From the NCBI GenBank assembly GCA_963920575.1, contig OY986972.1, forward strand, positions 823,501 through 887,500: a DNA stretch of 64,000 bases, read 5' to 3'. Each line of letters begins with the position of its first letter. The stretch's first letter is position 1. Positions 36,171 to 63,696 of the stretch are shown piece by piece. The DNA comes from Narthecium ossifragum (Eukaryota > Streptophyta > Magnoliopsida > Dioscoreales > Nartheciaceae). The position numbers and the translations under genes are program-made. Below the pieces are notes generated by a model, which saw only the letters and a list, made by a program, of their open reading frames with translations, was not told the DNA's origin and searched no databases.

Positions 36171-36946
36171 GGATCGATCATCCCCTAGGGTAGGATCGAT
36201 CCTCTCAGCAACAGAGAGTAAAGCCTCACTGTCGAGACAAAAGGATCGATCCTTCCTCTCAGGAGGATCGATCATTTTCGCGACAGAGAGCACCCTTCAG
36301 ATCGCACCACGAGTGATCGATCCTTCCTCACAGGAGGATCGATCCTCTTCGCGACGAAGGACAGCCATGCTCCCCAAGAACCAGGATCGATCCTCACCAA
36401 ACTGATGATCGATCCTTCATCGGGCGGAGCATGACCAACCCAGAAGATCGATCCTTCCTCAAGGGAAGATCGATCATGATGGGTTCCGCGGCGTCCTTCC
36501 GGCGAAGAATACCGCCGGAAGAGACAACCAAAAACCACGAAACTCTGGGATCTGATAGATCAGGATCCCACGAGTCCAAAACCGGCAAAAACACAGAAAA
36601 CCAACAACTATATACGCAGATCTAAGCAATAAACCACAGATCAAACCGGAAAACTCAAAACCCTGAAGAGAGATGTCGGTAGGATCCCTACCGGAGCAAA
36701 CGCAGCTTAGATCCAAGCAGCTAGGCCTTGGATCGTCCTCAACGCCTTCGAAAATCCCAAGATCCGAGCTCAAATCACCGGGTTTTCAAAAGGATTTGAA
36801 GGAAGAAGGTTCGTCTGCTTTATAGGCAAACAAACCGACCTATGAAGGATCGATCCTTACCCAAGGAATGATCGATCACCTCATGACGATCTCACTTGAC
36901 TTTCTGGCACAAGAGGATCGATCTCTTAGCTAGAGAGGATCGATCC
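36171..36946. promoter_or_regulatory. Paired GATCGATC palindrome array, 22-bp spacing (7 pairs)
   Basis: GATCGATC cores start at 36172/36194, 36244/36266, 36315/36337, 36385/36407, 36446/36468, 36848/36870 and 36916/36938. Every pair is exactly 22 bp apart although the 14-bp linkers differ. Most pairs extend as inverted repeats (for example GGATCGATCCTTCC... with ...GGAGGATCGATC), so each pair can also form a hairpin. Consecutive pair starts are 61-72 bp apart within each cluster. The two pairs at 36848-36946 lie just upstream of the TATA box; the other five are downstream of it, in the presumed transcribed part. Confidence 0.85.
36819..36824 (-). promoter_or_regulatory. TATA box of the family A LTR
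   Basis: CCTATAAAG on the minus strand, 22 bp downstream of the nearest GATCGATC pair (36848). The position is plausible for an LTR U3 promoter; the transcription start is not known. Confidence 0.45.
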
Positions 36947-37165
36947 TTTTTTGTGCTGAAAGCTAAACTTAGGCGAGAATTCAAGCCTAAGTCCGGATCT
37001 TTCGATCCCGGGTCCCACTAACCATCCTAAACAAACATTACCACAAACATGGTCAGTGTGTGTACAAGCGCGAGTGTGGAACTAGCCGACAAGGTGCAAT
37101 TTACCAAATTGCCCTTGCGGTCCACAGCGAGCCACAGGAGGGGAGGGACGGGTCCTCACATTTCA

Positions 37166-37678
37166 TGTCAGCAAGTAGTATACCTTCGAACATCAAAACC
37201 TTTTCTCTTCATCAACCATTCCATCCATGCCTCTGAAGCCTGAAATACTCACCAAAAAGGATATCAGGATGGCAAAAGGAAATGCAAACAAGCTTGGGCT
37301 GAGCAACAACAAAAGGAAATGCAAAAGTTGGTCGTGGATGCCCTAGAACTGGATCGAGCAAGGATGCAGGAGTACCTCAAGTAGTTTACTGAGCTCGGCA
37401 CCAAAGAGGAGAGGGGTCGCCTCCTCGCTCGGTGCCGGAGAGGAGATAGGTCGGGCGGGATCTAGGGCATCGTTCGGGGGAGAGAGGTACGCCTCCTCGC
37501 TCGTCGGTGCTGGATCCTTGGGCGAGGGCTAGAGCTTCCTTCGGGTTGGGGGGGGAAGGTTGGGCGAGAGCTCGACACCGGAGAGGAGAGAGGCTGGACG
37601 GTGGCTCGGTGTCGGCGGAGAGAGGTCGCGGAGAGGAACCACGAGCTCCGGACCGGAGAGAAGTCGCAGGCGAGAACG
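37166..37678. other. MULE interior between the solo LTR and the right TIR
   Basis: A short plus-strand frame ending at 37385 reads '..AEQQQKEMQKLVVDALELD..' and is coiled-coil-like. It then passes into a GC-rich, repeat-like segment (37386-37678) matching the character of the left leader. I assign no gene. Confidence 0.4.
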
Positions 37679-37917
37679 ACAGCAAGGGGGCCGGCGGCGA
37701 AGAGCAGGGGCGAAGATCAGGGGCGAAGAGCAGGGGGCGGCAGACCTAGGGCATGGAAAAAGAGAGAGAGAAATGAGGGGAAGCCCGCTGCCTCTGCCTT
37801 TCACGTGGGAGTGGGCCCCTTTGCCCGCCACGTCGGCGCCACGTCGGGTCGGCAAACAGCCGACCCACGTGGCGTCGGCACCGTATCATTTCTCTTAAAT
37901 AAAATGCCAATGATAAA

Positions 37918-38003
37918 ACCGTTTCTTTCCTTCTTTCTTTCTGGCATCACGTACCTATCTGCTGAATGGACCCATCAGCTGCTGCACAGCTTCGTTGATA
38001 TGA
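37918..38003 (+). repeat. Duplicated NLR segment, copy 2, left fragment
   Basis: About 86 bp ('ccgtttctttccttctttc...cttcgttgatatga') nearly identical to 17633-17723 of copy 1 and 59484-59575 of copy 3. The MULE end is on its left. The LINE interrupts it on the right, and copy 2 resumes at 43562. Confidence 0.85.
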
Positions 38004-39897
38004 ATGGTTCCACAGTTGAGGCTCCTGCTGATATTGGAAGAGCATTCGCAGAGTACTATGAATCTCTATGGAAGGTTCCTGAGGTACAGTTTGATCCATA
38101 TTGGCCCGCTCTTCCACTACTCTCTCAGGCCAGTTCATCTCTTCTCTCAAAGGCTATCTCACCTGAGGAAGTCCGGGCAGTTGTTTTCTATCTTGGCTCC
38201 AACCGACAACCTGGGCCCGATGGATTCACATCGGAGTTCTTTAAGGAGAACTGGGATGTTATTGGAGCTAAGGTCACTAATGCTATCCTACGGTTTTTTT
38301 CTTCCTCCTCCATGCCTGCTGGTTGGAATGAGACTTTCATTGCTTTAGTTCCTAAATGCAATCATCCAAGAAGAGTTCGGGACTTTCGACCAATCAGTCT
38401 TTGTAACTCACTCTATAAGGTTATCTCTCTTATCCTTGTTCAAAGGCTCAGAGGTGTCATACAGGACGTGATTGGTCCTCAGCAATCAGCTTTCTTGGAA
38501 GGCAGAGTAATTCATGATAACATAACTGTTGCTCAAGAAATTATCCACTCGGTTGCTAAGGCTCCAAGGAATCAACCAGCAATGGCCCTCAAGCTTGATG
38601 TCAGGGCTGCTTATGATACTGTTAGATGGGATTTCATTGAAGGAGTTTTGACTCGTATGAACTTCCCACAGCAGTTTATCTCTTGGATATCGTCGTGTAT
38701 TAGGTCCCCTCGCATGGCTTTCATTGTCAACGGTGGAGTTTATCAACACGTCTCTCCTAAAAGAGGTCTTCGACAAGGAGATCCTCTATCTCCCTTTCTA
38801 TTTATCCTTGGCCAAGTCGTCCTCTCCACCACTTTAGATGCAGAGGTGGGAGGGCTTAGAGGGTTGTCCTTTCCTCATAACCGGCTTAAAATTTCACATC
38901 TTATCCATGCCGACGACTGCTTCTTGGTTTCATATGCATCTTTAGCTGAAGCTCAGAACATTATCTGGATCTTTAAGTGGTATCATGCTTTATCAGGTAT
39001 GGAGCTAAATCCTCTTAAATCCAGTGTTATATTCTCTCCATCAATCCCTGCAGATCGAAGGCTTCGTATCAGTCGTAAATTGCATATGGCTGAGGAGGTC
39101 GGAACCTGGAAATACCTAGGTGTGCCGATCTCTGCTTCCAAACTCAAAGCAAGGGATTTCTCCTTCCTTATCGATAAAGTATTGGCTCGGCTTGCTCGGT
39201 GGGGAGGAAAGAGGGTCGCCATGCCTGGTAGAGCGGTGCTCTACCGTCATGTTATTCAATCTCTCCCAGTCCACTGCATGATGGCTACGGACATCCCCAT
39301 CGGCATCCTTCAGAAAATCGAGAAGATGGGGAGATCATTCCTCTGGGAGGGAAAAAAATCCAGTCTTTCAGTGGTGCGATGGAAGACTGTTTGCTCCCAA
39401 ATTGAAGATGGTGGACTCGGCTTCAGAGATCTTAGATTATGGCAAAGGGCTCTGCGTGTCCTTAGGGCATCCAAACTTATCTCACAAGATGACTCTCTTT
39501 GAAAACAAATCGTGTTTGCCAAATACAGATGGAGGCCCATATTGCCTTCTTCGATCCCTCCTAAGGATGCATCTCCGAGTTGGCGTAGCATTTGTCGGGC
39601 TACTAAAACTCTAAGGGAAGGTCTAAGATGGACCCCTTCTGTTGGTAGTAGAGTCCATGTACTCAAAGACTGGTGGTGTCTTGATCTCCCATTGACTCGT
39701 AAGCCCACTTTCTTTAATGTGGAAAGAGTCTCTGATCACTGCATTCTAGGCAACTTCATCAACTCGGAAGGGCGCTGGCGCAGGAGGAAACTCCTCAATA
39801 TCTTCCCTTCCTTCCTGGTGGATTCTATACTGTCTATGGAGATCGTCCATTCTAGCTCTCAAGATAAGGCAACTTGGACACTTGATACCAGACAATC

Positions 39898-42462
39898 TGT
39901 GAGGGCCCGCCCCTCAGACCTGACTCGACCACGTGGTTCGAGAGCCGATTTCCTATTGGTTTGGTTCCGCGTCGGGCACGATCGGGCGATCGTGTGGTGG
40001 TTTGGACCCCAGGGGCATTTTGGTAAATATGCCCCATGGTGGTCGGTTTCACACCCGCGTTGCACCCACGGCCTTGGATTGATGTATGTGATTGTTTGGA
40101 ATGGTTAGGTGGCCCGGGATCGGAAGATCCCAGCTCGGGCGCGCTAAAGCTCGTTTTCGGGCTCGTTAGCGGGCCGGTGGGCTTTAGGCCCGTTAGTGGC
40201 CTGGTGAGTGGAGGGTGGTTGGAGCAGTTGGCTCCAACCCCCACCCGCACCCCTCTCTTCTCTCCTCTCTTCTCTCCTTCCCTTCTTCTTCTACTTTTGC
40301 TGGTTCTTCCTTCTCTTCTCCACCGACGTCTCCTCTTCTTCTCCCCTTCTTCCCTCTCCTTCGGCTGGGCTTGATCTTGGTGGGGCTGAGTAGCGGATCT
40401 TCGTGGCAAGGTTGGCTGGACGCGTGGAGAAGCTGAGATTGCGTTTAAGGTAGGTGCTTCTACCTCGATCCTTGGATCGGGTTCTACTAGGTTAGGATGT
40501 TTGTGTTTTTGCTGTGAATACCATGATAGCATGCTTGTAGATCCTTGCCTATGTAATGCAGCTCATTCCTTGTATTCTTGCATTGCAAAACTGGTGTTAT
40601 AATGGTTAGTTTCCGTATCTCACGGTTTCGTCGGTTTTTGGTTTTCCGACAAAAAAAAATGGGATTTAACCGTTAAAAACTGGATTTCTTTATACCATTA
40701 GTTTCCTCACCTCAAAATATACTTGCTTGCAAAATTTGATTGTATTCTAACATGTTTTGATTCTTGAAAATCTTAGAATTAGGATTTCTGGTATTTTGCG
40801 TCTGGAGCTCGACGGTCGATCGGTGCATCGACCTTCAGCTCGACGGTCGATCTATGTATCGACCGTATAGATCGACCGTCATGCTTTAGTATATTTTCTC
40901 TGGGCCTGACGGTCGACCGTCGGATCGACCGTCGCATCGACCGTCGGGCTCTGTCGAGTTTTTGGGTCCCCAGGGTCGATGGATCGATCGACCGTGGGGC
41001 CTTCGCTTTTTCGCCATTTACCTGACGGTCGACCATCGGATCGACCGTCGCATCGACCGTCAGGCTCTGCTTGGTTTTGGGCTTCTCAGGGTCGATGGTT
41101 GGATCGACCGTCGCCTTTGGTTTTCTTCGTATGGGTCTCACGGTCGATCCACGGATCGACCGTGGCATCGTCCGTGGCCTCACGGTCGATCCACGGATCG
41201 ACCGTGGCATCGTCCGTGACCCTTTGAACAGTGTTCTTTGGTTCTTCTTGAATGGCTTTCAACTTTGATTGAGTCTTAAACGTGTTAGGAGGTTTATGGA
41301 TGGATTTGATGAGGTTTTCAAAGGGTTTTCATCGGGTTTGAGATTTGATCCGAGTTTCTTCCCTTTTTAGCAAACTTATGGTTGTGTTTGCAGTTAATTC
41401 AAGTTTGATAGAAATTAAATGTCTGGTTGCTTACTTAACCATTAGCTAGCTATGAGTGCTAGCTAATGAGGAATTGTGGAACCTTAGCCTCTTGCCGGCG
41501 AGTGCCGAGGGCTATTGTATATCTGTTGAACTTATAACTGTTGATGTGACATATAGAGACATCTAGGATTAGATGCTTGCTTAAGCTCATGCATTGTATG
41601 CATTAGAGGCATTTGAGGTTAGGCGGGCGATGTCTTGGGTCGCCGATCCGAGGCTCTCGGGTAGCTCGGATCTAGCCTTAGGACCGTGGCTGGGTAGTCA
41701 GGATTAGGGTGTGATTGTCGATCTGAATCTCTGATGATTGAGGATTGCGATAGTCGGCTTGAATCTTTGTTTGAGGTCTAGAGGTCGTGTCGTCTTCCAA
41801 GGCCAAGTGCTAAGGATGCAACCGAGGAGTTCCCGACGTGGTCCCCAGGCAGTGGTATCCCTGCTGGGTAAGGGTGAGTGATTCTGCATGGTTCCGTTCC
41901 CCTGTCAGTGCTTAGGGTGATCTTGGTAGAGAGACCAAGAGAGAGGTTCATGACAGGAGCCCTTGGGACATCGGTGGGTTATGGGACCCGTGGCATCCGT
42001 TAGACTTGGGCTGGGAGACAACACTGTTGTTGTTTTCCTCCTTTCAGTGTGCCGTAGAGTAGAACCCTACTGGGCTTTTTGCTCATTCCTACCCGGGCTG
42101 CGTTTGCAGGTGCAGGCGGCAGTTCCTCCTCAGTGGAGCCAGCAGGTTCGGCTTTCGGCGGCGCGAGTACATCCAGGGGCGTCTGAGGTTTGGTTGGAGG
42201 ATATGGCTGTTGTAACTTTTGATATTTAATTATGCATGTTGTACCCTTTTTGGAGAACCTTTGGGATGTTGTATAATTCTGTATTTTGGAACTCAGATAT
42301 TGTAAGACTTGATGTTATATTATGATTAAAATCTGCTTAGCCTCTGGAATACTTTTGCTTAAATTGTTTATCCTTTCCGCTTGTACTGCGCCGGTTGATG
42401 ATGAATAGTGCTAGGACCCTCACGCCCCGTCCTGGATGGGTTTTCTGGGTCGGGGCGTGACA
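39898..42462 (+). mobile_element. Solo LTR, gypsy (Tekay/Del-like ends), family A, 2565 bp
   Basis: Starts TGTGAGGGCCCGCCCC and ends GGGTCGGGGCGTGACA. The perfect 5-bp target duplication CAATC lies at 39893-39897 and 42463-42467. It cuts the LINE frame between 'TLDTRQS' and the zf-RVT region, so it inserted after the LINE. Same family as 34860-37160, opposite orientation. It contains a palindrome array with 12-bp spacing (40814-41206). Confidence 0.88.
40814..41206. promoter_or_regulatory. Paired palindrome array, 12-bp spacing variant
   Basis: The cores here are GGTCGATC and GATCGACC around TCGA. TCGA starts at 40816/40828, 40847/40859/40872, 40913/40925/40937, 40976/40988, 41029/41041/41053, 41092/41104, 41144/41156 and 41186/41198. 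All within-group distances are 12 bp except one of 13. Each pair is a strong inverted repeat, such as CACGGTCGATC-CACG-GATCGACCGTG (11-bp stem, 4-base loop). I found no clear TATA box just downstream, so this array may lie in the transcribed part of the LTR. Confidence 0.8.
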
Positions 42463-43922
42463 CAATCCTTCTCCTCCTCATCCCTGTATCTCCATCTCTA
42501 TTCTTTACAACACAAAGAGGTACCTCATACCGGTGTTATCAGATGGCAACAAATTTGGAAGGGCCCTTTTGGTCCCAGAATTAAATCCTTCCTTTGGAGA
42601 GCCTTCCATTCCAAGATTCCTACAAAGGAGTCCTTATACAGAGTTGGGGTAAGTCAGGACCCCTTATGCCCAAGGTGTAGAGTTCAGATGGAGTCTTTTG
42701 TGCACCTCTTCTTTGACTGTTCCTTCTCGCACATGGTCTGGGGGCATGTTTTTCGTACCGATCCTCTCTTTATTCAGCGGAAAGGATGGTGCGGGTGGTG
42801 TGAGGTCCTACTTAACCCCTCATCATCGGACTCCTCAATTGACAGGCGTTCTAAGCTTGGATATACTCTCTGGGAGCTATGGAAGGACCGGAATAGGTGG
42901 ATGTTTGAAGCAGAAGGTGATTCTCCTCTGGAGATTGCGAGACGTGCTCTTTGGCTCTCTAAGGAGTGGAGAATGCAAGCAAAGAGAGATGCAAGGCATG
43001 ATGATAGCTTAACTTCAGCTAGCCACGCGGACTGGGTGACGGTAAGGACGGATGCGGCGTTGCAAACCGGAACTCTTCCTGGGTTGGCCGGGCTTGGTAT
43101 TGTGGGCATGGACCACTCAGGGTTAGTGTTATGGGCAGCTTGTGACAGAGCTCTATGTAGCTCTGTTATGGAAGCTGAACTCCGGAGTTTTGGTCGGGGG
43201 GTTGACATCGCACGTTCCGAGGGCCTCAGATATGTCTCCTTCCAACTGGATGCCCGTGATGTGGTTGATTGTCTCAATGGGCGTCGACATTAGCCCAACG
43301 AGCTCCGTCATGTTGCCCAGCAAATCATATGGAACGTGGCGCAGATTCCGGCCATTCTCATCTCCTACATTCCGCGAGCTACTAATTCAGCAGCAGATGG
43401 TTTGGCCAAGATGGGGCTTGCTCAGTCTCCCTCTACTTGCTGGACTTTTGACCCTCGAACTGGTGGCCCGGTTCCGATGAGTGTTTGATTACTTGTTTCC
43501 TTTTATTTTTGCTTCTGTATTGCTTTCTCAGCCTTTGACTTAATTTATAAAATAAAAAAAACTTCGTTGATATGATGATGCCTTATTCCTTCATGGGTCC
43601 CTCCAGACTCCGGTCCTTTATACTATGCTTTGCTTTGCTTTGCTTCAATAGAAAGAAATGATGTGGAATCTTGCCACCTTGTCCTATTCGGAAGACTTTT
43701 AACGGAGTTGTTCTCGCCATTATTGGTTGGTGCTTCACACTGTTTCTGAATTAAGAGAGATCTAGCTAGGAGAAGAACAGGCGGAGGCTGGAAACTCTCT
43801 CTCGCCATTGCTTGCTGCATAACTCTGTTCTCAAGAGAGGGATATCGAGAGAGAGTCTCACAGAGAGAGAGAGAGAGATTTGAGAAGAGTAGAAGGTGGA
43901 GGCAAGTTTTTTGTGTACGAAA

Positions 43923-45921
43923 ATGTCGACCGGATTGACGATCGTCGGATGCTTTGCTTCCGGCACCATCAAGAGGCTGGTGGAGTTGGTCAGCTCGCCG
44001 GCGGTGAAGCAGTACGCGCGGCGGACAGGCCTTCAGGACGACATAAGGAAGCTGAGGGTTTCCCTGGGTAAGATCGACGCCCTCCTCAGCATCGCCGAGA
44101 GGAAGCGGGTGGAAGCAAGCGGCCGCCTCGACGACCTGCTTGGGGAACTCAAGGATGCCGCATATGATGCCGAGGATTTGCTGGAGGAGTTCGAGTACGA
44201 GGTCTTAAGGGTGAAGATGGAGAGCGATAACCCCCAGGCAAGTGATTTCCTCTCTTTTCCAGCTCTTATTAGAGATCCTAAAGAATCTTTTAAGTCCGCT
44301 GAATTTTTTTTGTTTTTTGCTTCTTCTTTTTTTGAAGTTGCAAAGTCTGAATCCTGCTGATGCTGCAAGTAAGGTGACGGAGATCCGGGAGAGGTTAGAT
44401 ATGCTTGATGATGAGGTGAGTCCTATCCTCGACAGGTTGTCAGCGGATGTCACCGCAACACCACAAGGGATTCCTGAGAGAGAGACCAGCTCCTTCCCTC
44501 ACATATCTGATCAATTTGTTGGTCGAGATGAAGAGATTCAAAAGATAATAGATTCGTTGCTGAATTCGGTTGAAGAAGGATCCGGGTCTACTAACAATAT
44601 GAAGAATCCAAGAGTCCTCCCAATAGTTGGTTTGGGAGGAGTGGGCAAGACTACTTTGGCTCAGCGTGTGTACAACAACGACACCATACAGAATCATTTT
44701 GAGTTGAAGATGTGGGTCTGTGTCTCTGAAAACTTTGATGTGAAACAGCTGACGATCAAGATAATTGAAGAGGCATGCAAACAGAGACCGAATATTGAAA
44801 GCTTGAATGCGCTCCAACAAAAACTCAAGGAGGAAATTCTACACAGGAGATTTCTACTCGTCCTCGATGATCTTTGGAGCGACAATCGTGCTGAGTGGGA
44901 GAGACTATGTGCCCCATTAGCATTTGGGTCCCATGAAAGCAAAATCTTGGTGACGACTCGATCAGAGAAAATTGCCAGCATTATATGCACTATGCCTCCT
45001 GTACTTTTGGAGGGCATAGCTGAGGAAGACTACTGGGCATTTTTTAGAAGTTGCGCATTTGGTAGTAGGAGTCATGAAAACCATCCAAAACTGGTGACAA
45101 TTGGTAGGGCAATAGCAAAGCGATTGAGGGGATCCCCTTTGGCTGCAAAGACACTGGGGAGATTGTTAAGTGTTCAATTTGATAAGAAACACTGGGAAAA
45201 CATTATGGATAATGAAATATGGCTACGCCGACAAGACCAAAATGACATTATGCCAGTGTTGAAGTTGAGTTATAAGCAGCTGCCTGGGCACTTGAAGCAG
45301 TGCTTTGCTTATTGTTCATTGTTTCCCAAGGACTATGTGTTCCAAGAACATTGGTTAGTGAAGATGTGGATGGCACAAGGTTTCATTAAGGTCGATGCAA
45401 GCAAGCGACCGGAAGATGTCGGCAGCCACTATTTCCAAGACCTAGTGTCCAGATCATTCTTTCAACAAAAATATTCTGGCTTTGTAATTCATGACTTGTT
45501 ACATGATATGGCACAGTACGTCTCAATCGAAGAATGTGGTAGAATAGAGGATGTCAAGTCAGAAAGCATCCCATGTACAATTCGCCATCTATCAATATAT
45601 ACAAAAGAGTGGAAGCTGTGGACATTAAAAAATATGTGTGACCTTAAGAAGCTACGAACTCTTGTCCTCCGTGATACAGTTATACTTGATTATAACAGTC
45701 AGGCTTTGCATGAGTTGTTAGGTGAACTAACAAGCATACGGGTGTTGGTTCTTAGCAATTGTGGTTTGGAAGAGTTGCGTGAGAGCATTGGAAACCTGAA
45801 GCATCTCCGGTACTTGGATGTCTCTGGGAATTACAATATGGTGATGTTGCCAAAATCTTTGTGTCATCTTTACAATCTCCAAGTTCTACATGTATCCGGG
45901 TGTCCAATTACCATATGGTGA
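43923..45921 (+). CDS. Truncated CC-NB-ARC resistance gene, copy 2
   Basis: Exon 1 is 43923-44237 and the GC..AG intron is 44238-44337 (100 bp, so it must be spliced). Exon 2 is 44338-45921, and the whole predicts 632 residues. The coiled coil and NB-ARC are intact: P-loop GLGGVGKTTLAQ, LLVLDDLWSDN, KILVTTRS, GSPLAAKTLG, CFAYCSLFPKDYVF, and IHDLLHDMAQ at the MHD position. Only the first few LRRs remain, after which the frame ends 'VSGCPITIW'. The loss is a deletion of about 1.75 kb relative to copy 3. It joins the fourth or so LRR to the 3' flank ('gccagtggtttctatgc') through a short locally copied filler. It may be expressed as a CN-type protein or be a dying gene; the sequence cannot say. 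Confidence 0.82.
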
Positions 45922-48330
45922 TGTTGCCAGAATCTTTGTGTCATCTTTACGATATGGTGATGTTGCCAGTGGTTTCTATGCTTCCCTCCCTCAATGTATC
46001 TCTCTCTTTCACTCTGTGTACCTTTATTTTATATATATATGTTTCAATCTTCTCTTGTAAAGAAAGGAAAGGCACATCTCTTGATGTTGCTTCCTATAAA
46101 GCCCCTTGGTCTTTATTTTTCCGTCAAGAGAAGAAACAGAGACAGCATTTCACTATTGGATACTCTTCTTACTGGTCAGTAAATAACCTCCTCAATTTAC
46201 ACATATGTCTATATTCCGATTCTTTTTTTGTTGATTAATTTAGCTTTTAAGCTAGGAAATTGATTGCTTGCTATATAAATTAGCTGCTGAGGTCTTGTTT
46301 CTTCTATAGTGTGTATTTCAAATCACAGTATTCCTGGATTCTTGTGGATCGGTTGAACTTTAAAATGGCCTTCTATTTCAAATCATCAAACTAACATCCC
46401 TCTTTCCTCGTCTCGCAGTAATTAATATGCTCCGCTGCCTGTTATGTAACTCCCTATTCATGGAAGTAGTCAGTGGTGTTTCAGTCACAGGCATGAATGA
46501 TCAAACTAAACTGGCGATGGTGGCCAACTGTAAGTACTAATGTTGCTTTTATATAAGCACAACCGCTCTGTTAATCAGGAGGAAATATATCAGCAACTGT
46601 TCTCAGGAGAGTGTTCAGATAGTTGTCAATGAGCATCGATCATCGAACATCTTTTGAAAGCATTTCGATTTGAATTCCTGCATGCAAAGTGGTGGGCAAT
46701 CTCCTGCGATTTGGATTCCGTGAAGTCGTAAATACTAAAACATTAGTAACTCTCAAAGAAATTTGATTTGGCATGGAACTCCAGATGCTGAAGGGAGATG
46801 CTTCTTCTGGTTTTGTGAAAAGCCTAACCTCGGATCATTTTGCCTGTGGAGATTGATAGTGACACTCCAACTGGTAATGTTTGTGACTCAATCAGTTTGC
46901 TAAAATGTGTGCAAGTGAATTCGTTAGAATTATATAGGTATGTTAGATAAGATTGTAGGTTTCCATCTATGAATTGCATCTTATTCACCTCAAACTAATT
47001 TATATCTTTTGGTGCTTTGATTTCTTCTCTTTAATTAGATGTTACTGTTTTAGGACAATCTGCATTGAACTGCAGGTTTCCAAACCTCTTTCATGATGAT
47101 ATTAATAGCTTGGGGTTTTGAGCTGGACTGGACATTACTTTTATCTCGCAATTTATTTTTCTGTAGCAAATAAATTTATCAATCTGCCATACAAGAATGC
47201 TAATTCTTTGCAAACATCCTTTCCACAGGAAAATGCTTATTCTGGTTATGTATAAAACTTGCGTGCAACTTTTGCAAACGTCTTGAATTCCACTGAAATC
47301 AATCCAGGTAGTCCTTTGAAATGTCCATCAAGTGGATTTGAAAAGCACCTTATGGTGGATTGGAAGGGTTAATACCAAAAGGAACTGAAGGACAGTTTGA
47401 GAAGCACCAAAAGAATATTCACAACTTTCCCAAATGCTTGCATCTTGCAGAGGCCAAGAACCGAAGGAATGAAGAGACCGTGAAATCCATAAATGTTACT
47501 CCAAAGCCAACAACATGGCCATATGCACATTCTTCTTATTTTTCTTCTGTCCACAAGGTCCATTCTTCTTGTACTTTTCTGGAACAATTTCACTCAAACA
47601 TGTACCATTTCTGTTTCCAGAGGTTCAATGAACAAAAGTTTGGCAAAAAAAGCTGTGAAATTGAAAACATCAGATTCTCTGTTGTAACTCAAGAAAATTG
47701 CATTTCAGGTTCATCCTGTGACAAAAATGAATGGCATATTGTGATTCTTGGGTTGGATCTCGCTCCCTTTCATCCCTCTTCAGTCTACTCTCATCCAATG
47801 TTCCAATAGTGGGTCCTTGAATTCATTAACCAAGGAGTAGTACACTTTGAAAGGAGAAGAAAAAGCTATGGCGAACTCCATTGGAGATCAAGTGCATTCA
47901 AAGCAAACAAATACAATTGTATTCGCTCTATACACAGCTACCTAACCACAAATTTACCTGATACAATCTTCTTCAGGGAGATGGAACTTTGCACGTAAAG
48001 CTCAAACATCAGAAACTTCGCATGATTTCAGGAGAAAAATAGATATATATATATATATATTGGGAAAAGATGAGCCCGAAGGCTAACAAAACACATGCTG
48101 GCTAGCAAAATAGAATGAACATAGGAGAAAACACCACCAAAATATCAAGTCATGGATGCAGAGAGCCTAAGCACAAAAAATGCATTCTGCAAGCATAGTC
48201 ATCTAATAAACCAGCAAATATGACCATTGTGTTTCCAAAGGTAGATCACATCAGTGGTACACTTACATAGCATTGCAATTACAAATACTCAAATTGAAAT
48301 TGAAACTAAAAAAGAAGAAGAAGAACAACA
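45922..48330 (+). other. Conserved downstream flank of NLR copy 2
   Basis: The counterpart of 22260-24770, with the same landmarks and (TA)n tracts (near 46030 and 48044-48060). It differs by a 50-bp-scale deletion near 46715 (copy 1 retains 'acctgttttaatataag...') and lacks the 80-bp insert of copy 1. No gene supported. Confidence 0.6.
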
Positions 48331-49743
48331 ACCTCTGCCTGAAAAATCTCGCTTTCTATTTTTTCTATATAATCTTTCTAATGGAGATGGAGCTTTGCAT
48401 GTAAGATAAACCTTCAGAAACTTGACATAATTTCAGGGGAAAAATAGATGAATATAGAAGAACAGACCACAAATATATAGCTTACATCGACAATTAACCC
48501 TCTTCGTAATGAATCATATACAACATACATGCTGCGGCTAATTATTCCATGCATATTCTTCGCATTCTCAGCAACAAATGCCAATCAGATGAATGCTAAA
48601 AACACCCTAACAGCGAATATATCGCTTTTTACAACCTGACAACACAAGTCAGTACCAACTAGAGGTGAACAACATCCTGCTTAAACTTGTATTCCTTCTA
48701 TCTCGCCCATGCCGCAAAACTTTTACCCCTTCTATGGGATAAGCTTGGCTCTGGTTCAGTCCAAAACTGCTTGATTGACTTCATTGTCATGCCATTGCAG
48801 GACCAGCCTGTGATTCCATCAGTTGCAAGTAACAGGAAAGTAATTGCCTGCGTTATGTGTTCTCTTAGATAAACCTACAACTGTTGACTTGCCATTGCTT
48901 GAGTTAAGGCCCTTTATAAATGGCATCAGTATTTCTGTACCTGAGATAGGACTGAACAAGGAACAGGAAAAGAAAATCTTTTACCTGTGGTCAAATGGCA
49001 GATAAAAACCATCACCACTGGAATTTACCCATCATTATTGTTTTTCTTTACCACTTGATTTCTTTCTTTATGTGCCTGAACCTTTCCTTCCTGCAGCCAT
49101 TTATCTCCAAGATAATAATGCACGAGACTAACAGAACTTATGCAACAACTTTTGTTTCTCTTAATAGAAATCAATGAATGAGGATTTCATAACCTCGACC
49201 TCCCAAAGTAAGGAAAAAGAACTTGTGTTATGAACAGTTAGGTAATACACGCATGAAGACAACATTAAGGCATGATGAAGCTATTTTTCAACACCATGTT
49301 CGCTCCAAAAAAGAACTATCTAATATAGTAAAGCATATCCATATAAGACTATAGACCTAATACAAGATGCACTCCATAATTGAGACATTACCATCACACT
49401 TCATTTAGGTGGGAGCCAGAGCAAGGCATACAGAGAAATCAATGAAGGTTCCTTGATCTGCAAGGGCTCTTCAGGGATAGAAATGATGCTAAGCAGTTAT
49501 TCTCTCCACAAGGCCTCTTCTACATCCTTCAAATGTACAGAAACAGATCACTTTGCTGTAATGATTTTCTCGGTGCTTTTTTTTTTCTTTTGAAAGCCCC
49601 TTACTATGTCCAAGGATCAGAACCCTTTCCTTTATTTCTAGGAGAGAGTTAAAAGATTTCTAGGAGAGAGTTAAAAGCTCATGTTCCAACGAATAACAAA
49701 AGTTACAAAATACAGCTTGAGAAGATAAGTAAAAGGAACACAC
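48331..49743. other. Unassigned sequence; downstream side of the KAKU4-like gene
   Basis: 48331-49040 is present here but absent from copy 1. The rest is AT-rich with no recognisable exon. Because the KAKU4-like gene on the minus strand continues in this direction, missing C-terminal exons could be here, but I cannot identify any with splice support. Confidence 0.4.
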
Positions 49744-49793
49744 TGTTGGCTTTTTCCTCCCATGAGGATGATGACGGCAGCGAAGGATCATTG

Positions 49794-50114
49794 GATCGAT
49801 TGAAGACGGATCGATCGGGCCTTGAAGAATTTCGACAGATCGATCTACGGATCGATCGGTCTTTGAAATTGAACAGCCGATCGATCCGTCTCTCAAAGAC
49901 GGATCGATCCGACTCGGAAAACAAAGGGACAGAAGGCACCTATTTTCGAACGGCAAGGACGGATCGATCCGTCGATCGATCCGACTCATGATTTTGAGTT
50001 TTTTAGGGACGGATCGATCGCTCCTTCAGACTGGGATCGATCCGACTCGGGAATTCTGGAATCCCTCGTTCTCACGCATACTCGGATCGATCCTTCCCTT
50101 GAGTGGGATCGATC
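49794..50114. promoter_or_regulatory. GATCGATC palindrome array in the copia LTR, mixed 12/22-23-bp spacing
   Basis: GATCGAT(C/T) cores start at 49794/49809 (15 bp), 49838/49850 (12), 49879/49902 (23), 49962/49974 (12), 50012/50035 (23) and 50085/50107 (22). The typical context is GACGGATCGATCCG. The last pair ends 65 bp upstream of the TATA box. The LTR body is otherwise unrelated to the gypsy LTRs that carry the same motif. Confidence 0.8.
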
Positions 50115-50178
50115 TCTCTCTCCTGAACGGACAAATCCGACGGCTCAGATTTAATCCAGATTTGTGTTTATTGGAGGC

Positions 50179-50186
50179 TATAAATA
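50179..50186 (+). promoter_or_regulatory. TATA box of the copia solo LTR
   Basis: GCTATAAATAAAG lies 65 bp downstream of the palindrome array, the position expected for a U3 promoter. Transcription would start about 30 bp downstream. Confidence 0.6.
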
Positions 50187-50523
50187 AAGTGCTTTTAGGA
50201 TTTCTTTGTGTGGGAGAGATGTTATTGAGAGGCTTGTGAGAGGTGTGAGAGTAGGCAACCTTAGAGAGAGATCTCTTTGTCTCTGTTAGGGTTTGGGCTT
50301 TGTAATTTCTCTCTCATAGTGAAGATTTCCTCTGCTGCCTGTGGTTTTTTCCTTCCAGTTGTTGCTGATAGGTTTTTCCACGTAAATACTGGTCTCCACT
50401 TTTTCCTTTTCTTTTGTGGTTTGGTTGTTTCTCTTCCGCTACGACATCCCCGTATCTATTTGGTGTATCTCCGGCATCGCCGGGACCCCTCAGATTCCCC
50501 AACACACACTACAATCCACTTAC

Positions 50524-52770: not shown

Positions 52771-52890
52771 CTACAACATATTAGAAAATCAGCTAAATAT
52801 ATGGTCTTCGAGCTAAATACAACACCCAAAAAAGCACAACAAAACAGGTCCATTAAAGCTTCCTGATGGTCATTAAAACACACATTAGCA
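52738..52890. repeat. 21-bp direct repeat at the 5' break of the KAKU4-like gene
   Basis: TCATTAAAACACACATTAGCA occurs at 52738-52758 (inside an exon) and again at 52870-52890 (outside any recognisable exon). The second copy is followed by unrelated sequence with a GAGAGC-rich run, marking a probable junction. Confidence 0.6.
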
Positions 52891-53265
52891 GAGGAAGGGT
52901 CGTTAGAGGAGGACATGAGAGAGAGAGAGAGCGAGCGAGACGGGGGTTAGGAATGGAGGGAGATTAATTGCCGCAATGGCACGTGAGACGCATGTGCTAC
53001 CTTTTATAAATAGTTCATTGAGGTAGTTAGTCAACTGTTTCTTAATTTTGTAGTTATAAAACTGAGAAATACGGTAACGATCCATGTTTTTGTTCATGGC
53101 TATCCAAATACAAGGGTTTTTTATATATTTGTTTTTCCCTCTAATATTGCATATGCTAAAAATGAGTAATCCAATTCTGGCATAGATTGCTATGTATGAC
53201 AAATCATTTTTTTTTCTTTTAAATCAACCCTTTTATCTTGACTCAGGGCTAAGTGCGTTACATTT

Positions 53266-53644
53266 TCTAACACATTTGGGATCTTGGGAATCCGATACCA
53301 ACCCACTAACACTCCCGTCTTGAGACAGGCCTGCCCTAAGTCATCCGGAGATGGCATGGCCAAGGGCCAAATCTATGACATGGTGGTGGTTGGCGTCACG
53401 ATGGGAGGGCTGATGGCCTCATGATAGCAAGCAAAGCATGCCAAGACGAGCTAGTCGACATCCCTCCAAGAATGGTGCAGTGAACTTTAAAGATGGCACG
53501 ATGGACTAAGCCAAGAAAGTTAGCGCGCCATGCCGCCGTGCGACACGATCCGCCAGAATCCGAGTGGCACTAAGACTCCGAACCCTACTATGACTTAAAT
53601 TCTAGCTCCGCTAGGACTCTGTACAACGGGATAATGATGATGGC
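53266..53644. other. Left part of an older LTR-like sequence
   Basis: Non-coding sequence ('cactcccgtcttgagacagg', 'gtggtggttggcgtcacg') whose continuation lies after the solo LTR, from 55297 to about 56130. The two halves share the target 5-mer ATGGC. No coding domains; the element type is uncertain and its outer ends were not fixed. Confidence 0.4.
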
Positions 53645-54680
53645 TGACGCGCCCAAACCACTCGTCGTTAAAAGTGACTAGGGCGTCAAAGATTACAATT
53701 TATACCGAATCCTAACTAACTACTACGTAGCTAGCGGGAGTCCGGGTCGATCCGCAGGGAAATGAGAATTGACTAACGTACTCGATAGATAACTCCAAAC
53801 AACTAGCTAAAATGATTTGGGTTTTGAATTAATGTCTATTAAAGCAATTAACTAAATGAAGAGAAATATAACTAATATAGAGAGGTCTTGGGATCTCCAT
53901 TTCATTGTAGGTTCTAATGTAGCCTCCTAAGGAATTAAGGTGTGTAATCCAATTGGGACGATCGAAATCAAGAAGTCGACAAGCGGGTGGTTAGCCTCAC
54001 TTATCGCTCAACGGAAGTCGGTTTAGGATCATCCGCCGGAAATAATCACATTCACAAAGTCGACGAATGAGTGATTAGCTTCTATCGTCGCTAACGAACC
54101 TTCGACTAAGATCGATTCGTCGCAAGAAAAAGATATTGCATGGAGTCGAGCATTGGATCGAGATGGTTCTAGCACCTCGAATCCAATGCAAGAGAAAGAT
54201 AGAATGGATCCTTTGACTAGAGAGATAGGGATGGTTCTAGCATCCCTAATCTCTAATCTAGGGCTAGTAATCCTCCCAATGTCATTGGATGTGTTTCTAG
54301 CACATCCAACTCATTGGGGCATAACAACAAACACCTATCATGCACAAGTCCTAACTCATACCAAAGAAAGGCATTCATCCATTCAACAAATAAAATCCAT
54401 GTACATAGATAGAGAAATCATGCTCAAATCCATACAATAGATCATCCCTAAAGATTACACATCAAAACCCTAAGAAAACTACAAAAGAATCCTACAACTA
54501 CATGGAAATCCCAAGAGGGAGGAAGTTAGCTACTCATCTTGGATAGATCCATGGATGGAGGTTGATGAAGCTCCCCTCCCATGGATTCCCTCCAAGAAGT
54601 CCTCCTCTCAATTGGGTAAGAAACCTAGAAGGGCTGGAGAAAGCTAAGAGAAGACTCACTAAAATCCCCCCTAAGGGGTC

Positions 54681-54688
54681 TATTTATA
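54681..54688 (-). promoter_or_regulatory. TATA box of the family B LTR (53645-55291)
   Basis: TATAAATA on the minus strand ('ctataaatagaccc'), 63-65 bp downstream of the nearest GATCGATC pair (54753). Confidence 0.55.
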
Positions 54689-54752
54689 GTAAACAAGCCT
54701 CCCCCACTCGGATTAGATCTGGGCCATTGATTTTGCTCGGCTGGCATCAAAG

Positions 54753-55122
54753 GATCGATCCTCATAGGGTGAAGGATCGATCATTCGCTTCGTGTGATCG
54801 CTGGTCCCGTGAAGGATCGATCCTCCCATAGGAAAGGATTGATCTTTTCTTCTTGAATTCTGGCTTCGCCCCGATGAAGATCGATCCTCCAGTGTGTGAA
54901 GATCGATCCTCTAGAATTTGCGTTCTGTCACTGGGAAAATGCGCAAAAGTGATCGATCCTTCCCAGGGTGAAGATCGATCCTTCAGAATTTGCGTTCTGT
55001 CACTGAGAAAATGTGCAAAAATGATCGATCCTCTCATGACATAGGATCGATCCTTTGTGTCATGATTGGCTCCTTCTTAATGCACTTCAAAGGATCGATC
55101 CTTCTTCAGTACATGATCGATC
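54753..55122. promoter_or_regulatory. Paired GATCGATC palindrome array, 22-bp spacing (6 pairs)
   Basis: Core starts are 54753/54775, 54815/54837 (second core GATTGATC), 54879/54901, 54951/54973, 55023/55045 and 55093/55115. All six pairs are exactly 22 bp apart. Pair starts are 62, 64, 72, 72 and 70 bp apart. A part-decayed extra core (GATCGCTG) sits at 54796. Confidence 0.85.
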
Positions 55123-55296
55123 TTCTTCATAAAAACTGGCCCGAATGACATCGTTTAAGCTCGGAACTTGATCCAATCCTCGTTAAGGGCACTTGTACCT
55201 GTAATAGGGTAAAATCCATCAGTAAGGCCTTGCTCGGAGACTAACAAGGCCAAGTTAAAAGGGCGATTTATGCACTTTTCACGTCTTATCAATGGC

Positions 55297-56130
55297 AAGA
55301 GATGGCGTGGGCAAAGTTCGAGTTTCACTAAGAGTCCTAGTCAGACCAGGACTTGGCGCGCCAGCCGGACGCGCTCAGTGGTTTTGGATAAATTTGATCA
55401 TGTGGACTTGGAGATCTACTTGGACTCTATCCTAGGAAGCTTTTGACGCAGCAAAGTGGAGTTTTGGTGCAGAAAAAAGTTACTTGACGCGAAAGAAAAG
55501 GACCAGAGTTTTAGTCCAAGTCAGGTGCTTGGCAGCTCGGCAAAAAGCTATCTTTGTCAAGTCCTACTCGAGGCAGAGTCCAAGTAAGACAATGTACCTT
55601 CTAGATTGGCGGATTGGTGCTCATATTTGCATGAAGCCTTGAACTTTGAGTTGGAGTAGAGAGATTGACTTGTAGGACAAGTCACGGACTCTTCGCTATA
55701 TAAAGATTTGACCGACCAAGATGGGAGAGCATCTAGGCATTGGCTGGGGTTTGGGTTCCTAATATTCTTAAGTGATCTTGTACCATAGGTTGGGAGAGAG
55801 TTGTGAGTGATTCTCTTGTAAAAATTGTTTATCAATAAATGAACGAGGTATCACCCTTTGCTAATATCGTGTCTTCTTCTTGGGGTGTGTGATTGTGCAA
55901 GAAGTGGGAGAAGGGTTGGTCAAGAGCGGATCTTGCTACACAGACGATCTCAAAGACTGGGTCATGACGCGTGTCAGGTGTCAACACAATGTGGTGGAGC
56001 TTGAGGCCGAGGGTTCTTGGTGCCGAGTGCCGACATCGGGTTCTCTTCTTTGTGAAAAAAAAAAAATTCCCGCTACACAACCGGGTGACACTAACCAGCG
56101 GAGTTATTCAAGGGTTGTGTGTGACAAAAT
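55297..56130 (+). other. Right part of an older LTR-like sequence with TATA motif
   Basis: Contains 'cgctatataaagatttgacc' (TATA motif near 55696-55704), then 'caataaatgaacgagg' (polyadenylation-like, near 55830). Together with 53266-53644 it looks like the U3-R-U5 of an older LTR split by the family B solo LTR. No coding domain. Confidence 0.4.
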
Positions 56131-56840
56131 CTAGTTGAAACCTTTGAAAACAATGGATCGTCTCAGTATTTATTATTTGGATAAAGAGTAGCGTCTGGTC
56201 ATAAAGCGGTGGAACAAGAATACAAGAAGTTATTTCATGAGATAATACACGTAGAAGGTATCTTTTCACACTATACTAGATTTATCTTGTTTATGTAATT
56301 TTAAAAATATAGAGGTCGGTGAGAGATTTGGACTTTTGAGATTTAACCATTATTAGTAAACTATTAATAGGTCACAGTAGAAAAAACTTTTAGAAATAGC
56401 CAAACCATTGGACCGCACTCATTCAACAGCCCGAGGAACAAAAGTCTCGGACGCATGATTGCTATGGAGCCGGATTTTGTTCTTGTTTTTGATATTTTAT
56501 TTTTATTAGCTAAGCCTTTTATTTTGCCTCAGGGGTGCAATTGGGTAAATGCCTTATATTTTTAACAAATTTATGGGCTTAGGTGATTGAACCCGAACAA
56601 GTCCATTACTATCACCGAAGATTAACCACTTGAGCTACTCAAAGACTATTGAAAGACTCTTGATGTAGAACTAGATTGTTTGGTTAAAAAGTCATCTATC
56701 TAATTGTTTAGAAGGGTGGTTAGTATCTCTTGGGTTAAGACCTCTCTAGTCGTGTACGAGTTGGTCTTTAAATTCTTTTTTATAATGGTATTATTTATTA
56801 TGATTCTATTTAAGGTAAATATACTTTAGTACATTGTAGT
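56131..56840. other. Unassigned AT-rich sequence
   Basis: No gene, element end or conserved motif is recognisable between the LTR-like region and the hairpin at 56841. Confidence 0.4.
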
Positions 56841-56882
56841 TTAAGTAATGTTTTAAATAATACTATTTAAAACATTACTTAA
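56841..56882. repeat. Perfect 42-bp hairpin at the left junction of duplicated copy 3
   Basis: TTAAGTAATGTTTTAAATA (56841-56859), loop ATAC, then its exact 19-base reverse complement (56864-56882). Homology to the copy 1 segment begins within two to three bases of the right arm's end (56880). The left flank is unrelated to copy 1. Confidence 0.9.
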
Positions 56883-58185
56883 ACCTGCTCTGAGTTGGAT
56901 ACACCATTCTAGTCATATAGGTGGAACTCTAATCATATTACTCCTAATTGTACTGCATTTACAAACCATAACCAGGGTAAACAGAGTTGAATAAAAAGAT
57001 ACATCAGTTGCACACAACACCAGGATGCTGTTACTATTCACTGATACCAGCTCAGCATCAAGGTGCTACTTTTTGTTAATGCGAGTTCTTGTTTGGGATC
57101 CCAGGAATTAGACCTTGGATCTGGGGGTCATGACTGATGAGACGTGGAAAGTGTCGCGGCTTAACGCGCCCGATCAAAATTAGAAATTTATAATCAAACT
57201 CCTAACTACCTTTGGGGGTAGCTAGCGGTGAGTCCGAGTCGAATCCACAGGGAATGCGTAAGGAAACAATTGAATTACCAAGCTCAATCTAAGTGTTCCT
57301 ACAAGGATAATAAAAGAAATGGTTTTTGGGTTTTATGATAAGAAAACTAAGAAAGCATATAAATGATTCAATGGATATAAAGAGGTCCTAGGGAATCCCA
57401 ATCCGGATTAGGCTCAATCATAGCTTTCTAATGGATCAAGATGTGCAATCCTATCGAGACACTACAATATCGACTACCTTGTGGCTAACAAAGGTCGTCG
57501 CTAACGAATAACCGGTTAAGGACTATCCGTCGCAAAAGGTGTATGCTAGAAAGTCGACGATCGAGGGATTAGCTACGATCATCGCCAATGAGAAGTCGGG
57601 TTAGGATCATCTCATCGCAAGGAATCGGGTTGTATGGAATATGGTAATGGATCGAGGTGGTTCTAGCATCTCGAATCCAAAACACTACAAAAGATAGGAT
57701 AGATGCTAGGTTAGATGTGGATTGGAGTGGTTCTAGCACACCCAAGTCCCTAACCTAGAGCCAAGACTCCCTTCAACACAAGTGGCCATGGTTCTAGCAC
57801 AACCTACTCATTGGGGAATATCAACAAACACCTATTGGGCACAAGGTTCTAGCTTATGCAAACCAAAGAATCCATCCATCCAACATTAGAATCCAACTAC
57901 AAAGATGTAGAAATGAAGAATAAATCCATACAACTTGTCTCATAAGGATTACAACATCCAAATCCAAAGAAAACTACAATAAAAACCTAAAACATCATGG
58001 TATTCCACTAGGTAAATAGATTAGCTACTCATCTTCGATGGAGAAGCCATGGAGAAGAGATGGATTCTCTTCTTCATCAATTTCCTCTCTCTTAGATGAG
58101 AGCTCCCTTCCTTGCCCAAGGGGATTGCCCCTTTCCTTAGCCTCTTCTTGTCCAAAGGAATCCCCAAAATCCCCCAAAAGCGGTC

Positions 58186-58193
58186 TATTTATA
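58186..58193 (-). promoter_or_regulatory. TATA box of the family B LTR (57135-58783)
   Basis: TATAAATA on the minus strand ('gctataaatagaccg'), 64 bp downstream of the nearest GATCGATC core (58257). Confidence 0.55.
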
Positions 58194-58256
58194 GCCTCCA
58201 AGCATCCCCCCTCGGATTAGATCTGGACCATTGATTTTGCTCGGCTGGCACAAAAG

Positions 58257-58420
58257 GATCGATCCTTATAGAGTAAAGGATCGATCCTCCTCTTGAGTTC
58301 TGGCTGCGCCACGACGAGGATCGATCCTCTAGTAGATAGAGATCGATCCTAGAGAATGTTGCGTTCTGTCTCTGGAAAATATGCAAAAAGGATCGATCCT
58401 TTATACACAGAGGATCGATC
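58257..58420. promoter_or_regulatory. Paired GATCGATC palindrome array, 22-bp spacing (3 pairs)
   Basis: Cores start at 58257/58279, 58319/58341 and 58391/58413. All three pairs are exactly 22 bp apart, with pair starts 62 and 72 bp apart. This is the same layout as the TATA-proximal end of the array at 54753, with half as many pairs. Confidence 0.85.
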
Positions 58421-63653: not shown

Positions 63654-63696
63654 ATCCTGCCAGTGGTTTCTATGCTTCCCTCCCTCAATGTATCTT

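What the first reader, a model, noticed from the sequence alone, without database searches (positions are those of the whole stretch)
36171..58420. Unrelated solo LTRs share arrays of paired GATCGATC palindromes
Five solo LTRs in this window each carry a cluster of short TCGA-centred palindromes: 34860-37160, 39898-42462, 49744-50504, 53645-55291 and 57135-58783. They belong to at least three families by their ends and bodies (copia-like TGTTGG..CCAACA, gypsy-like TGTGAGG..CGTGACA, and TGATGAGACG..CGTCTCATCA). Outside the LTRs I saw only one isolated, unpaired core (near 24868). A shared module in otherwise unrelated LTRs suggests either convergent acquisition of host-factor sites or exchange between elements. 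I know of no described module with this layout.
Basis: seen in the sequence. Interest (0 to 1): 0.88.

Follow-up and report, generated by a model that had tools for sequence, protein, structure and literature searches.

The report
Shared palindrome arrays in plant retrotransposon promoters
In one plant genome, unrelated families of jumping genes carry the same short mirror-symmetric DNA word, in pairs about two turns of the helix apart, in front of their promoters; this suggests that one host DNA-binding protein may help switch on many different jumping genes.

Summary
All 43 GATCGATC in the window lie inside the five solo LTRs (about 1 expected by shuffling), and all five have perfect 5-bp target duplications. 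With arrays masked, the LTRs form three groups: A/B, C, D/E. B has one exact core and a diverged palindrome array. In the whole genome (379 Mb) pairs 21, 22 and 23 bp apart occur 15,484, 33,313 and 19,361 times; the 15 spacings 24-38 bp together 7,408; reversed controls 0-72. Arrays sit in both LTRs of a Ty3/gypsy element related to E and of Ty1/copia elements (C type and another). In C and D/E types the TATA box lies 71-73 bp past the last core, about one array unit (~72 bp), and a promoter block around CAGATYTAATCC is shared. Cores are 48/48 conserved between D and E, against 85/116 for other array bases. Best reading: an upstream activator array of palindromic sites for a dimeric host factor, spread partly by exchange of promoter blocks, partly by convergence. 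Closest known: palindromic repeated motifs of Sirevirus LTRs, published as Sirevirus-specific. New here: one core and one geometry across copia and gypsy. Factor and activity are untested; the genome-wide LTR fraction was not measured.

The parts
34860..37160 (-). Solo LTR A, 2301 bp, 14 cores; class not determined
   Evidence: TSD TTTCA on both sides; masked blastn groups it with B
36848..36945 (-). LTR A, two core pairs just upstream of its first TATA-like site
   Evidence: 22-bp pairs; TATA 31 bp beyond
36172..36475 (-). LTR A, five core pairs, downstream of the first TATA-like site and 112 bp upstream of a second
   Evidence: spacings 22,50,22,49,22,48,22,39,22
36819..36824 (-). LTR A candidate TATA box
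   Evidence: TATAAA; not tested for use
39898..42462 (+). Solo LTR B, 2565 bp, inserted in a LINE; class not determined
   Evidence: TSD CAATC; LINE RT and RNase H frames on its two sides
40809..41201 (+). LTR B array of other TCGA-centred palindromes (GGTCGATC/GATCGACC/GGTCGACC), one exact GATCGATC at 40982
   Evidence: 23 TCGA listed; lies between A-B homology blocks that also bracket A's five-pair array
49744..50504 (+). Solo LTR C, 761 bp, Ty1/copia type, 11 cores
   Evidence: TSD CACAC; L052 has a copia gag between two LTRs 89-90% like C; family
49809..50114 (+). LTR C core array, 11 cores
50146..50157 (+). LTR C box CAGATTTAATCC between array and TATA
50179..50186 (+). LTR C TATA box, 72 bp from the start of the last core
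53645..55291 (-). Solo LTR D, 1647 bp, 11 cores; probably Ty3/gypsy
   Evidence: TSD ATGGC; grouped with E; class inferred from the gypsy element L039/L040, whose LTR is a partial relative of E
54753..55122 (-). LTR D core array (11 cores, one partner decayed to GATTGATC at 54837)
54710..54721 (-). LTR D box CAGATCTAATCC
54681..54688 (-). LTR D TATA box, 72 bp from last core
57135..58783 (-). Solo LTR E, 1649 bp, 6 cores; probably Ty3/gypsy
   Evidence: TSD ATGAC; paralogous empty site at 16905-16950; 8126 candidate places in the genome, 40 scored; class inferred as for D
58257..58420 (-). LTR E core array, 6 cores in three 22-bp pairs
58214..58225 (-). LTR E box CAGATCTAATCC
58186..58193 (-). 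LTR E TATA box, 71 bp from last core
16905..16950 (+). Empty site of the LTR E insertion in the tandem-duplicate copy, with a single ATGAC

Best explanation
The arrays are the upstream activating region of the LTR promoter. Each GATCGATC, with a few symmetric flanking bases, is a palindromic site for a dimeric host DNA-binding protein. Sites come in pairs 21-23 bp apart (about two helical turns) repeated about every 72 bp, and in the C and D/E types the TATA box sits one such unit past the last pair, so bound proteins can act together on the start site. Many copies give strong transcription and tolerate loss of single sites. Because the protein is a host protein, unrelated elements profit from the same word. 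The copia family C and the D/E group share the promoter-proximal block by exchange between elements; the A/B group reached the same core and pairing independently. Shown: the sequence, its geometry, conservation of the core, and its presence in the LTRs of copia and gypsy elements. Inferred: that D/E itself is gypsy, binding, dimerisation, activation, exchange. Candidate factor (a lead only): a GATA-type zinc-finger protein that prefers GATC cores.
For: 43 of 43 cores in LTRs. Genome-wide pairs at 21/22/23 bp: 15,484/33,313/19,361, against 7,408 for 24-38 bp pooled (about 494 per spacing) and 0, 3, 7 and 72 for the reversed control patterns. Copia: gag between two C-type LTRs (L052); L050 has copia gag, integrase and RT frames between two identical core pairs 4,849 bp apart. 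Gypsy: gag, RT, RNase H and integrase in L039 between two LTRs with the same 11-core array. TATA 71-73 bp from the last core in 14 of 40 arrays with 3 or more cores, 93-96 bp in 4 more, C and D/E types alike; background 3.8% of 150-bp stretches per strand. E cores against D: 48/48 bases kept, other array bases 85/116, Fisher P 1e-5. Dyad symmetry extends beyond the core in 75 distinct pairs. C and E promoter blocks align at z 10.7 over shuffles; among 21 TATAAAT sites of the window E and D score highest against C (82 and 62, next 44). A D/E promoter profile without core and TATA gives 25 hits at E<1, all beside cores, among them all eight C-type promoters tested.
Against: No binding or expression data. 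In A five of seven pairs lie downstream of its first TATA-like site, and B has another palindrome. The C hits of the D/E profile are weak (E 4.5e-4 to 0.39; window C 0.17), and the sequence searched was chosen for arrays. The block alignments include the TATA box itself. 18 of 40 arrays have no CTATAWA within 150 bp, and the 14 include both LTRs of three elements. The LTR of the gypsy element L039 matches E over two blocks only (193 nt at 84%, 92 nt at 76%) and D not significantly, so the class of D/E is inferred. The 20 sampled regions were chosen around matches, so they cannot give the fraction of pairs outside LTRs. Arrays L042 4035-4320 and L057 4680-5203 match none of the five LTRs. Helical phasing is mixed: all spacings together peak at 13.0 bp; only without the 21-24 bp pairs is the best period 10.9 bp.
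Confidence: 0.6

Rival explanations
1. The palindromes act in RNA: transcripts through the array fold into hairpins that feed siRNA production or help pair two genomic RNAs, and DNA binding is not the point.
For: Array RNAs fold far better than dinucleotide shuffles: z -7.1 (D), -6.5 (C), -10.7 (A), -12.5 (B). Maize Sirevirus palindrome clusters attract small RNAs (Bousios et al. 2016, seen only as cited in a passage of PMC10760457). The facing flanks of a pair are complementary above shuffles at four positions in 67 distinct 30-mers read from the first places listed.
Against: Symmetry within one core (z at offsets 1-4: 5.1, 5.8, 3.9, 3.0 left; 2.2, 6.0, 0.8, 3.3 right) is about as strong as between the facing flanks (3.2, 6.8, 2.5, 4.9), which a hairpin does not need. 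The array is in register with the TATA box in C and D/E types. Any repeated palindrome folds well, so the z-scores are not independent evidence. One core shared by unrelated families would make RNA pairing unspecific.
Confidence: 0.13
2. Host-side targeting: the sites are bound by a host protein that silences or marks these elements, as with motif-guided RNA-directed DNA methylation (recalled), and elements keep them for another reason.
For: Many families share one word, as expected of a host reader of transposons.
Against: Elements would gain by losing the sites; instead the core is the best kept part of the array and sits in register with the promoter.
Confidence: 0.1
3. An element-encoded DNA-binding or anti-silencing protein reads the array, as VANC proteins do in VANDAL transposons (recalled, not looked up).
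For: Such systems also use arrays of short degenerate repeats (recalled).
Against: Copia and gypsy elements carry the same core; C-type copies with LTRs 1.9-2.1 kb apart, too short for a full gag-pol, carry it too. A trans-acting protein of one family is not excluded.
Confidence: 0.1
4. Neutral spread: the array is a tandem repeat that grew by slippage and unequal exchange and has no function.
For: Whole pair units are gained and lost (72-bp copies in D, 86% alike; D has 11 cores, E has 6).
Against: Cores unchanged while spacers diverge; the same word and pairing in unrelated LTRs; fixed distance to TATA in copia C and in D/E types.
Confidence: 0.05

Closest known systems
Repeated motifs (RM) of Sirevirus LTRs (Ty1/copia); Bousios et al. 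2010, PMC2829016
   Same: Arrays of short dyad-symmetric boxes (8-32 per element), in the LTR mostly in its upper half, upstream of a TATA box; family-specific sequences; two listed RMs have a TCGA centre (Vitis CGGTCGACCG, close to the palindrome of LTR B; Tnd-1 ACAATCGATTGT)
   Different: Reported as Sirevirus-specific, all but Tnd-1 with a CGG-CCG signature; here one GATCGATC core with 21-23 bp pairing and a ~72-bp register to TATA in gypsy and copia LTRs of one genome. The passages and sections that I read name no fixed pair spacing
Palindromic repeat arrays as cis-regulatory regions of various transposon families, as summarised in PMC10760457 (passage read)
   Same: Arrays of repeats, sometimes palindromic, said to be frequent in cis-regulatory regions
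   Different: The passage speaks of different families in different organisms; it names no core shared between superfamilies
Transfer of an LTR motif between superfamilies: 162-bp motif of gypsy RLG_Quinta found in copia RLC_Gisela (einkorn wheat, PMC11302176, passages read)
   Same: A regulatory LTR segment shared by a gypsy and a copia family through proposed acquisition
   Different: There a nucleosome-related motif in one family pair; here an activator-like array plus promoter block
Repeated activator boxes in plant LTR U3 regions, such as Tnt1 (box I named in PMC2829016; details recalled)
   Same: Repeated cis-acting boxes upstream of the LTR promoter
   Different: Two or three repeats in tandem as that paper puts it for earlier cases; here 6-14 cores per LTR in A, C, D and E, shared between families
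GATA-type factors with GATC-core sites (GATA12, GNC, GNL), as stated in PMC6918188 (one passage read)
   Same: That paper lists GATCGATC among predicted rice promoter motifs and relates GATC cores to GATA proteins
   Different: Not shown to bind these LTR arrays; a lead only

Membership tests
Sirevirus RM array | At least eight copies of a dyad-symmetric motif | tested here: met
   Met for A (14), C (11), D (11); not for E (6); B has a different palindrome
Sirevirus RM array | CGG-CCG signature in the motif | tested here: not met
   C: CGG...CCG on both sides in 2 of 11 cores; A, D, E are mostly AG-core-CT
Sirevirus RM array | Cluster lies upstream of the LTR TATA box | tested here: met
   C, D, E; A only in part; no TATAWA found in B
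Sirevirus RM array | Cluster forms a CpG island | tested here: inconclusive
   Array windows, CpG observed/expected: C 0.9-1.8 and B 1.4-1.7; A, D, E mostly about 0.9-1.05; no island program was run
Sirevirus RM array | Host element is a Sirevirus (Ty1/copia) | tested here: not met
   L039/L040, with arrays in both LTRs, is gypsy: RVT_1, RNase H, integrase, Retrotrans_gag. C is copia (L052); Sirevirus PPT and PBS marks were not examined
LTR of an LTR retrotransposon | TG...CA ends with 5-bp target duplication | tested here: met
   All five window LTRs; empty site for E
Ty3/gypsy membership of LTRs D and E | Gypsy pol between two LTRs of the same family | tested here: inconclusive
Binding sites of GATA-type factors | Bound by such a factor in vitro or in vivo | not testable with these tools
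   Only the statement on GATC cores in PMC6918188

The most novel reading that the evidence does not exclude
In this plant a single host DNA-binding protein is a shared switch for much of the retrotransposon load: tens of thousands of paired palindromic sites, built to one helical geometry, have been acquired by copia and gypsy families alike, partly by promoter blocks moving between superfamilies, so that the LTR enhancer evolves as a mobile module separate from the element that carries it.
Probability: 0.4. Interest if true: 0.86.

Novelty: new variant of a known kind. Interest (0 to 1): 0.72.

Why it matters
How transposons win host transcription factors, and whether regulatory modules move between unrelated elements, is mostly known from single families. 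Here one genome offers tens of thousands of sites with one word, one pairing distance and, in several families, one distance to the TATA box, in two superfamilies. That makes the question testable with one binding assay and one reporter series, and it widens a feature published as Sirevirus-specific. If the factor is found, it would predict when many families become active together.

Tried and rejected
Chance or composition: rejected. One family only: rejected by masked comparison and protein domains. Hairpin as the unit: my first test looked like hairpin covariation; the fuller test showed about equal symmetry within single cores, so I dropped it as the main reading. Both tests use related families, so their z values are too good. 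Spacer homology between A and D/E: mean identity exceeds shuffles (2.75 against 2.43 of 10 in the same orientation, P 0.04; 3.29 against 2.48 in reverse, 0 of 2000 shuffles), and linkers do so by mean (0 of 300) but not by maximum (P 0.25). I put this down to purine/pyrimidine flanks of the core, not descent; this is a judgement. Pairing of spacer interiors beyond the core in the window alone was not significant (34 of 80, P 0.30). Helical phasing of unit lengths in the window alone was weak (P 0.014, best periods 9.5-9.9 bp). In the pooled test I entered spacings of 21 sets out of the 43 arrays, one count per set and spacing; all together peaked at 13.0 bp (R 0.49; at 10.5 bp R 0.31), and 10.9 bp (R 0.57) came out only with the 21-24 bp spacings dropped. 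In the D-E alignment taken whole, core columns show 61 matches, 19 mismatches and 8 gaps, because E lacks part of D's array; the 48/48 figure counts only the six cores of E. Viral contigs: 34 stretches held one pair each and I did not study them further. Protein searches with array-spanning frames of C and B: 38 and 234 candidates, none significant. The species was not identified: the eight best hits of a PPR gene of the window are 53-66% identical flowering-plant proteins, apart from one unnamed. Literature searches that bear on novelty: (open-licence PMC papers only); Bousios et al. 2016 is not held.
Full report
What is there. The window holds 43 copies of the palindrome GATCGATC, against a mean of 0.94 in 100 dinucleotide shuffles. 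All 43 lie inside five solo LTRs: A 14, B 1, C 11, D 11, E 6. For E the empty site survives in the tandem-duplicated neighbour at 16905-16950, with one ATGAC, so most simply E moved in after that duplication (flanks 96-97% identical). B sits inside a LINE that itself has an empty site near 59562. The self-comparison (repeats of 80 bp or more) showed no direct repeat pair that looked like a complete LTR element in the window.

Three groups. With the arrays masked, blastn joins A with B (E 2e-21) and D with E (E 4e-60); C stands apart except for 54 nt at the core promoter that match E (E 1e-4). Class comes from the genome. Between two C-type LTRs in L052 lies a copia gag. L050 has copia gag, integrase and reverse transcriptase frames between two identical core pairs 4,849 bp apart, and its promoter matches C over 67 nt. 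L039/L040 span a gypsy element (gag, protease, reverse transcriptase, RNase H, integrase) whose two LTRs carry the same 11-core array and are 99.2% identical over 1534 bp. Its LTR is a partial relative of E: similar ends and two blocks, 193 nt at 84% and 92 nt at 76%. So arrays in copia and in gypsy are shown; that D and E themselves are gypsy is an inference. The class of A/B was not determined.

Genome-wide. The window is C10:823501-887500 of a 379.4-Mb assembly. Core pairs at start-to-start distance 21, 22 and 23 bp number 15,484, 33,313 and 19,361, 68,158 in all; a core can belong to two pairs. The fifteen distances from 24 to 38 bp together give 7,408. The reversed patterns, kept as controls by the tool, give 0, 3, 7 and 72. 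LTR C has 658 candidate places and LTR E 8,126; only 40 of each were scored, at 85-93% and 94-96% identity apart from the window copy. C copies occur as pairs 1.9-2.1 kb and 4.3-5.8 kb apart, E copies as pairs 4.9-5.2 kb apart.

Geometry. In 20 regions of 4-10 kb taken around matches on contig 1 (176 kb; a sample biased to arrays) there are 226 cores against 7 CTAGCTAG. Of 32 clusters with two or more cores, 30 lie within 1.5 kb of masked homology to one of the window's LTRs, a loose rule that nested neighbours can satisfy; two do not (L042 4035-4320, L057 4680-5203). Consecutive spacings are commonest at 12, 21-24, 38-40, 48-50 and 59-62 bp, and pair-to-pair distances at 70-73 bp. A period near the DNA helix (10.9 bp) appears only when the 21-24 bp spacings are left out; with them the best period is 13.0 bp, so I use helical phasing as weak support only. 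Of 40 arrays with three or more cores, 14 have CTATAWA 71-73 bp beyond the last core and 4 have it at 93-96 bp, which is one pair step further; in L048 and L049 a decayed partner core is visible there. These 18 are of C and D/E type alike and include both LTRs of L039/L040, L051 and L052. A-type arrays (window and L062) have it at 31 or 112 bp; 18 arrays show none within 150 bp. In L050 a TATAAATA lies at about the same distance but misses the pattern by its first base (read by eye).

Conservation. Aligning E to D, the six cores of E are unchanged (48 of 48 bases) while the other bases of the same stretch keep 85 of 116 (Fisher P 1e-5), and only 6 of 66 non-core 8-mers are wholly kept. Each core holds a CpG, the base step that decays fastest in methylated plant repeats (general knowledge). 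One decayed partner, GATTGATC, is seen in D. The dyad symmetry reaches beyond the core and differs between families (CT/AG, TC/GA, AT/AT and others). In 75 distinct pairs, taken from 178 in the loci and window, this symmetry is about as strong within single cores as between the facing flanks of a pair, which fits a palindromic protein site better than a hairpin. Array RNAs do fold strongly (z -6.5 to -12.5), as any palindrome array must.

Exchange or convergence. C and E share the block between last core and TATA (z 10.7 over shuffles; C and D 6.9; TATA box included). Among 21 TATAAAT sites in the window, E and D score highest against C (82 and 62; next 44). A profile built from nine D/E-type blocks, L039 among them, without core and TATA, was run over the window and loci L039-L073. 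It gives 25 hits at E below 1, all beside cores: its nine members, L040, L066 and L072 (an overlap of L071), the eight C-type promoters tested (E 4.5e-4 to 0.39; window C 0.17), L067 and L069 with their overlapping loci L068 and L070, and L057 312-345. The link is weak for single C copies, and the sequence searched was rich in arrays. The common word is CAGATYTAATCC. A shares no promoter with them (z about 0), and B carries another palindrome in the interval that corresponds to A's large array. So I read C and D/E as exchange and A/B as convergence; both are inferences. Exchange of an LTR motif between copia and gypsy has a published precedent in wheat (PMC11302176; passages read).

How it probably works. 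Palindromic sites two turns apart, repeated each ~72 bp and in register with the TATA box, are what one expects of an upstream activating array bound by a dimeric host protein whose dimers touch. The protein is unknown. One paper relates GATC cores, in a passage that also lists GATCGATC as a predicted rice motif, to GATA-type factors (PMC6918188; one passage read). Nothing here shows binding or activity.

Known or new. Arrays of palindromic repeated motifs upstream of the LTR TATA box are described for Sireviruses and were said to be absent from classic retrotransposons (PMC2829016; section 9, the first of two parts of section 15, and passages read). PMC10760457 adds that cis-regulatory regions of different transposon families are often arrays of sometimes palindromic repeats (passage). 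This finding is of that kind but fails two marks of the Sirevirus motif: the CGG-CCG signature, and being confined to Sireviruses. What I did not find in print (open-licence papers only) is one core with fixed pairing shared by copia and gypsy LTRs. I therefore call it a new variant of a known kind.

Limits. The genome search answered six of many tries. The share of pairs outside LTRs was not measured.

Noticed in passing
29105-37929: Inverted repeats of about 230-250 bp (29105-29336 and 37677-37929, 85% alike) enclose FAR1/MULE transposase frames (30316-32570): a Mutator-like element in which LTR A is nested.
   Followed up: partly
38004-43561: A LINE (RVT_1, zf-RVT, RNase H) with a 14-bp target duplication and an empty site near 59562; LTR B is nested in it.
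   Followed up: partly
17758-22590, 43689-46289, 59684-64000: Three tandem copies of an NBS-LRR resistance-type gene region, about 90-94% identical over the long matches.
   Followed up: no
25330-27110: A long degenerate tandem repeat of GTAGTTACTTTCCA-like units whose left part is in inverted orientation; a similar-looking one lies in L044 5477-8990.
   Followed up: no
L055 4691-4853: A 163-bp piece with 9-bp inverted ends (TGTTGGGAA) and a 5-bp duplication (CACTA) that holds three cores: possibly a miniature LTR carrying the same array.
   Followed up: partly
LTR D and E, the 300-400 bp past the TATA box: CpG observed/expected falls to 0.0-0.2 just past the TATA box while most array windows stay near 0.9-1.0.
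   Followed up: no
L057 2890-5203: An array of 14 cores follows a retroelement-type aspartyl protease frame and matches none of the five LTRs; it may be an internal array or an unknown LTR.
   Followed up: no
G000:C1:3041359-3041557 and 3335182-3335437: Dense 21-bp pairs with flanks unlike those of the window's LTRs, apparently further families with their own symmetric flank.
   Followed up: no
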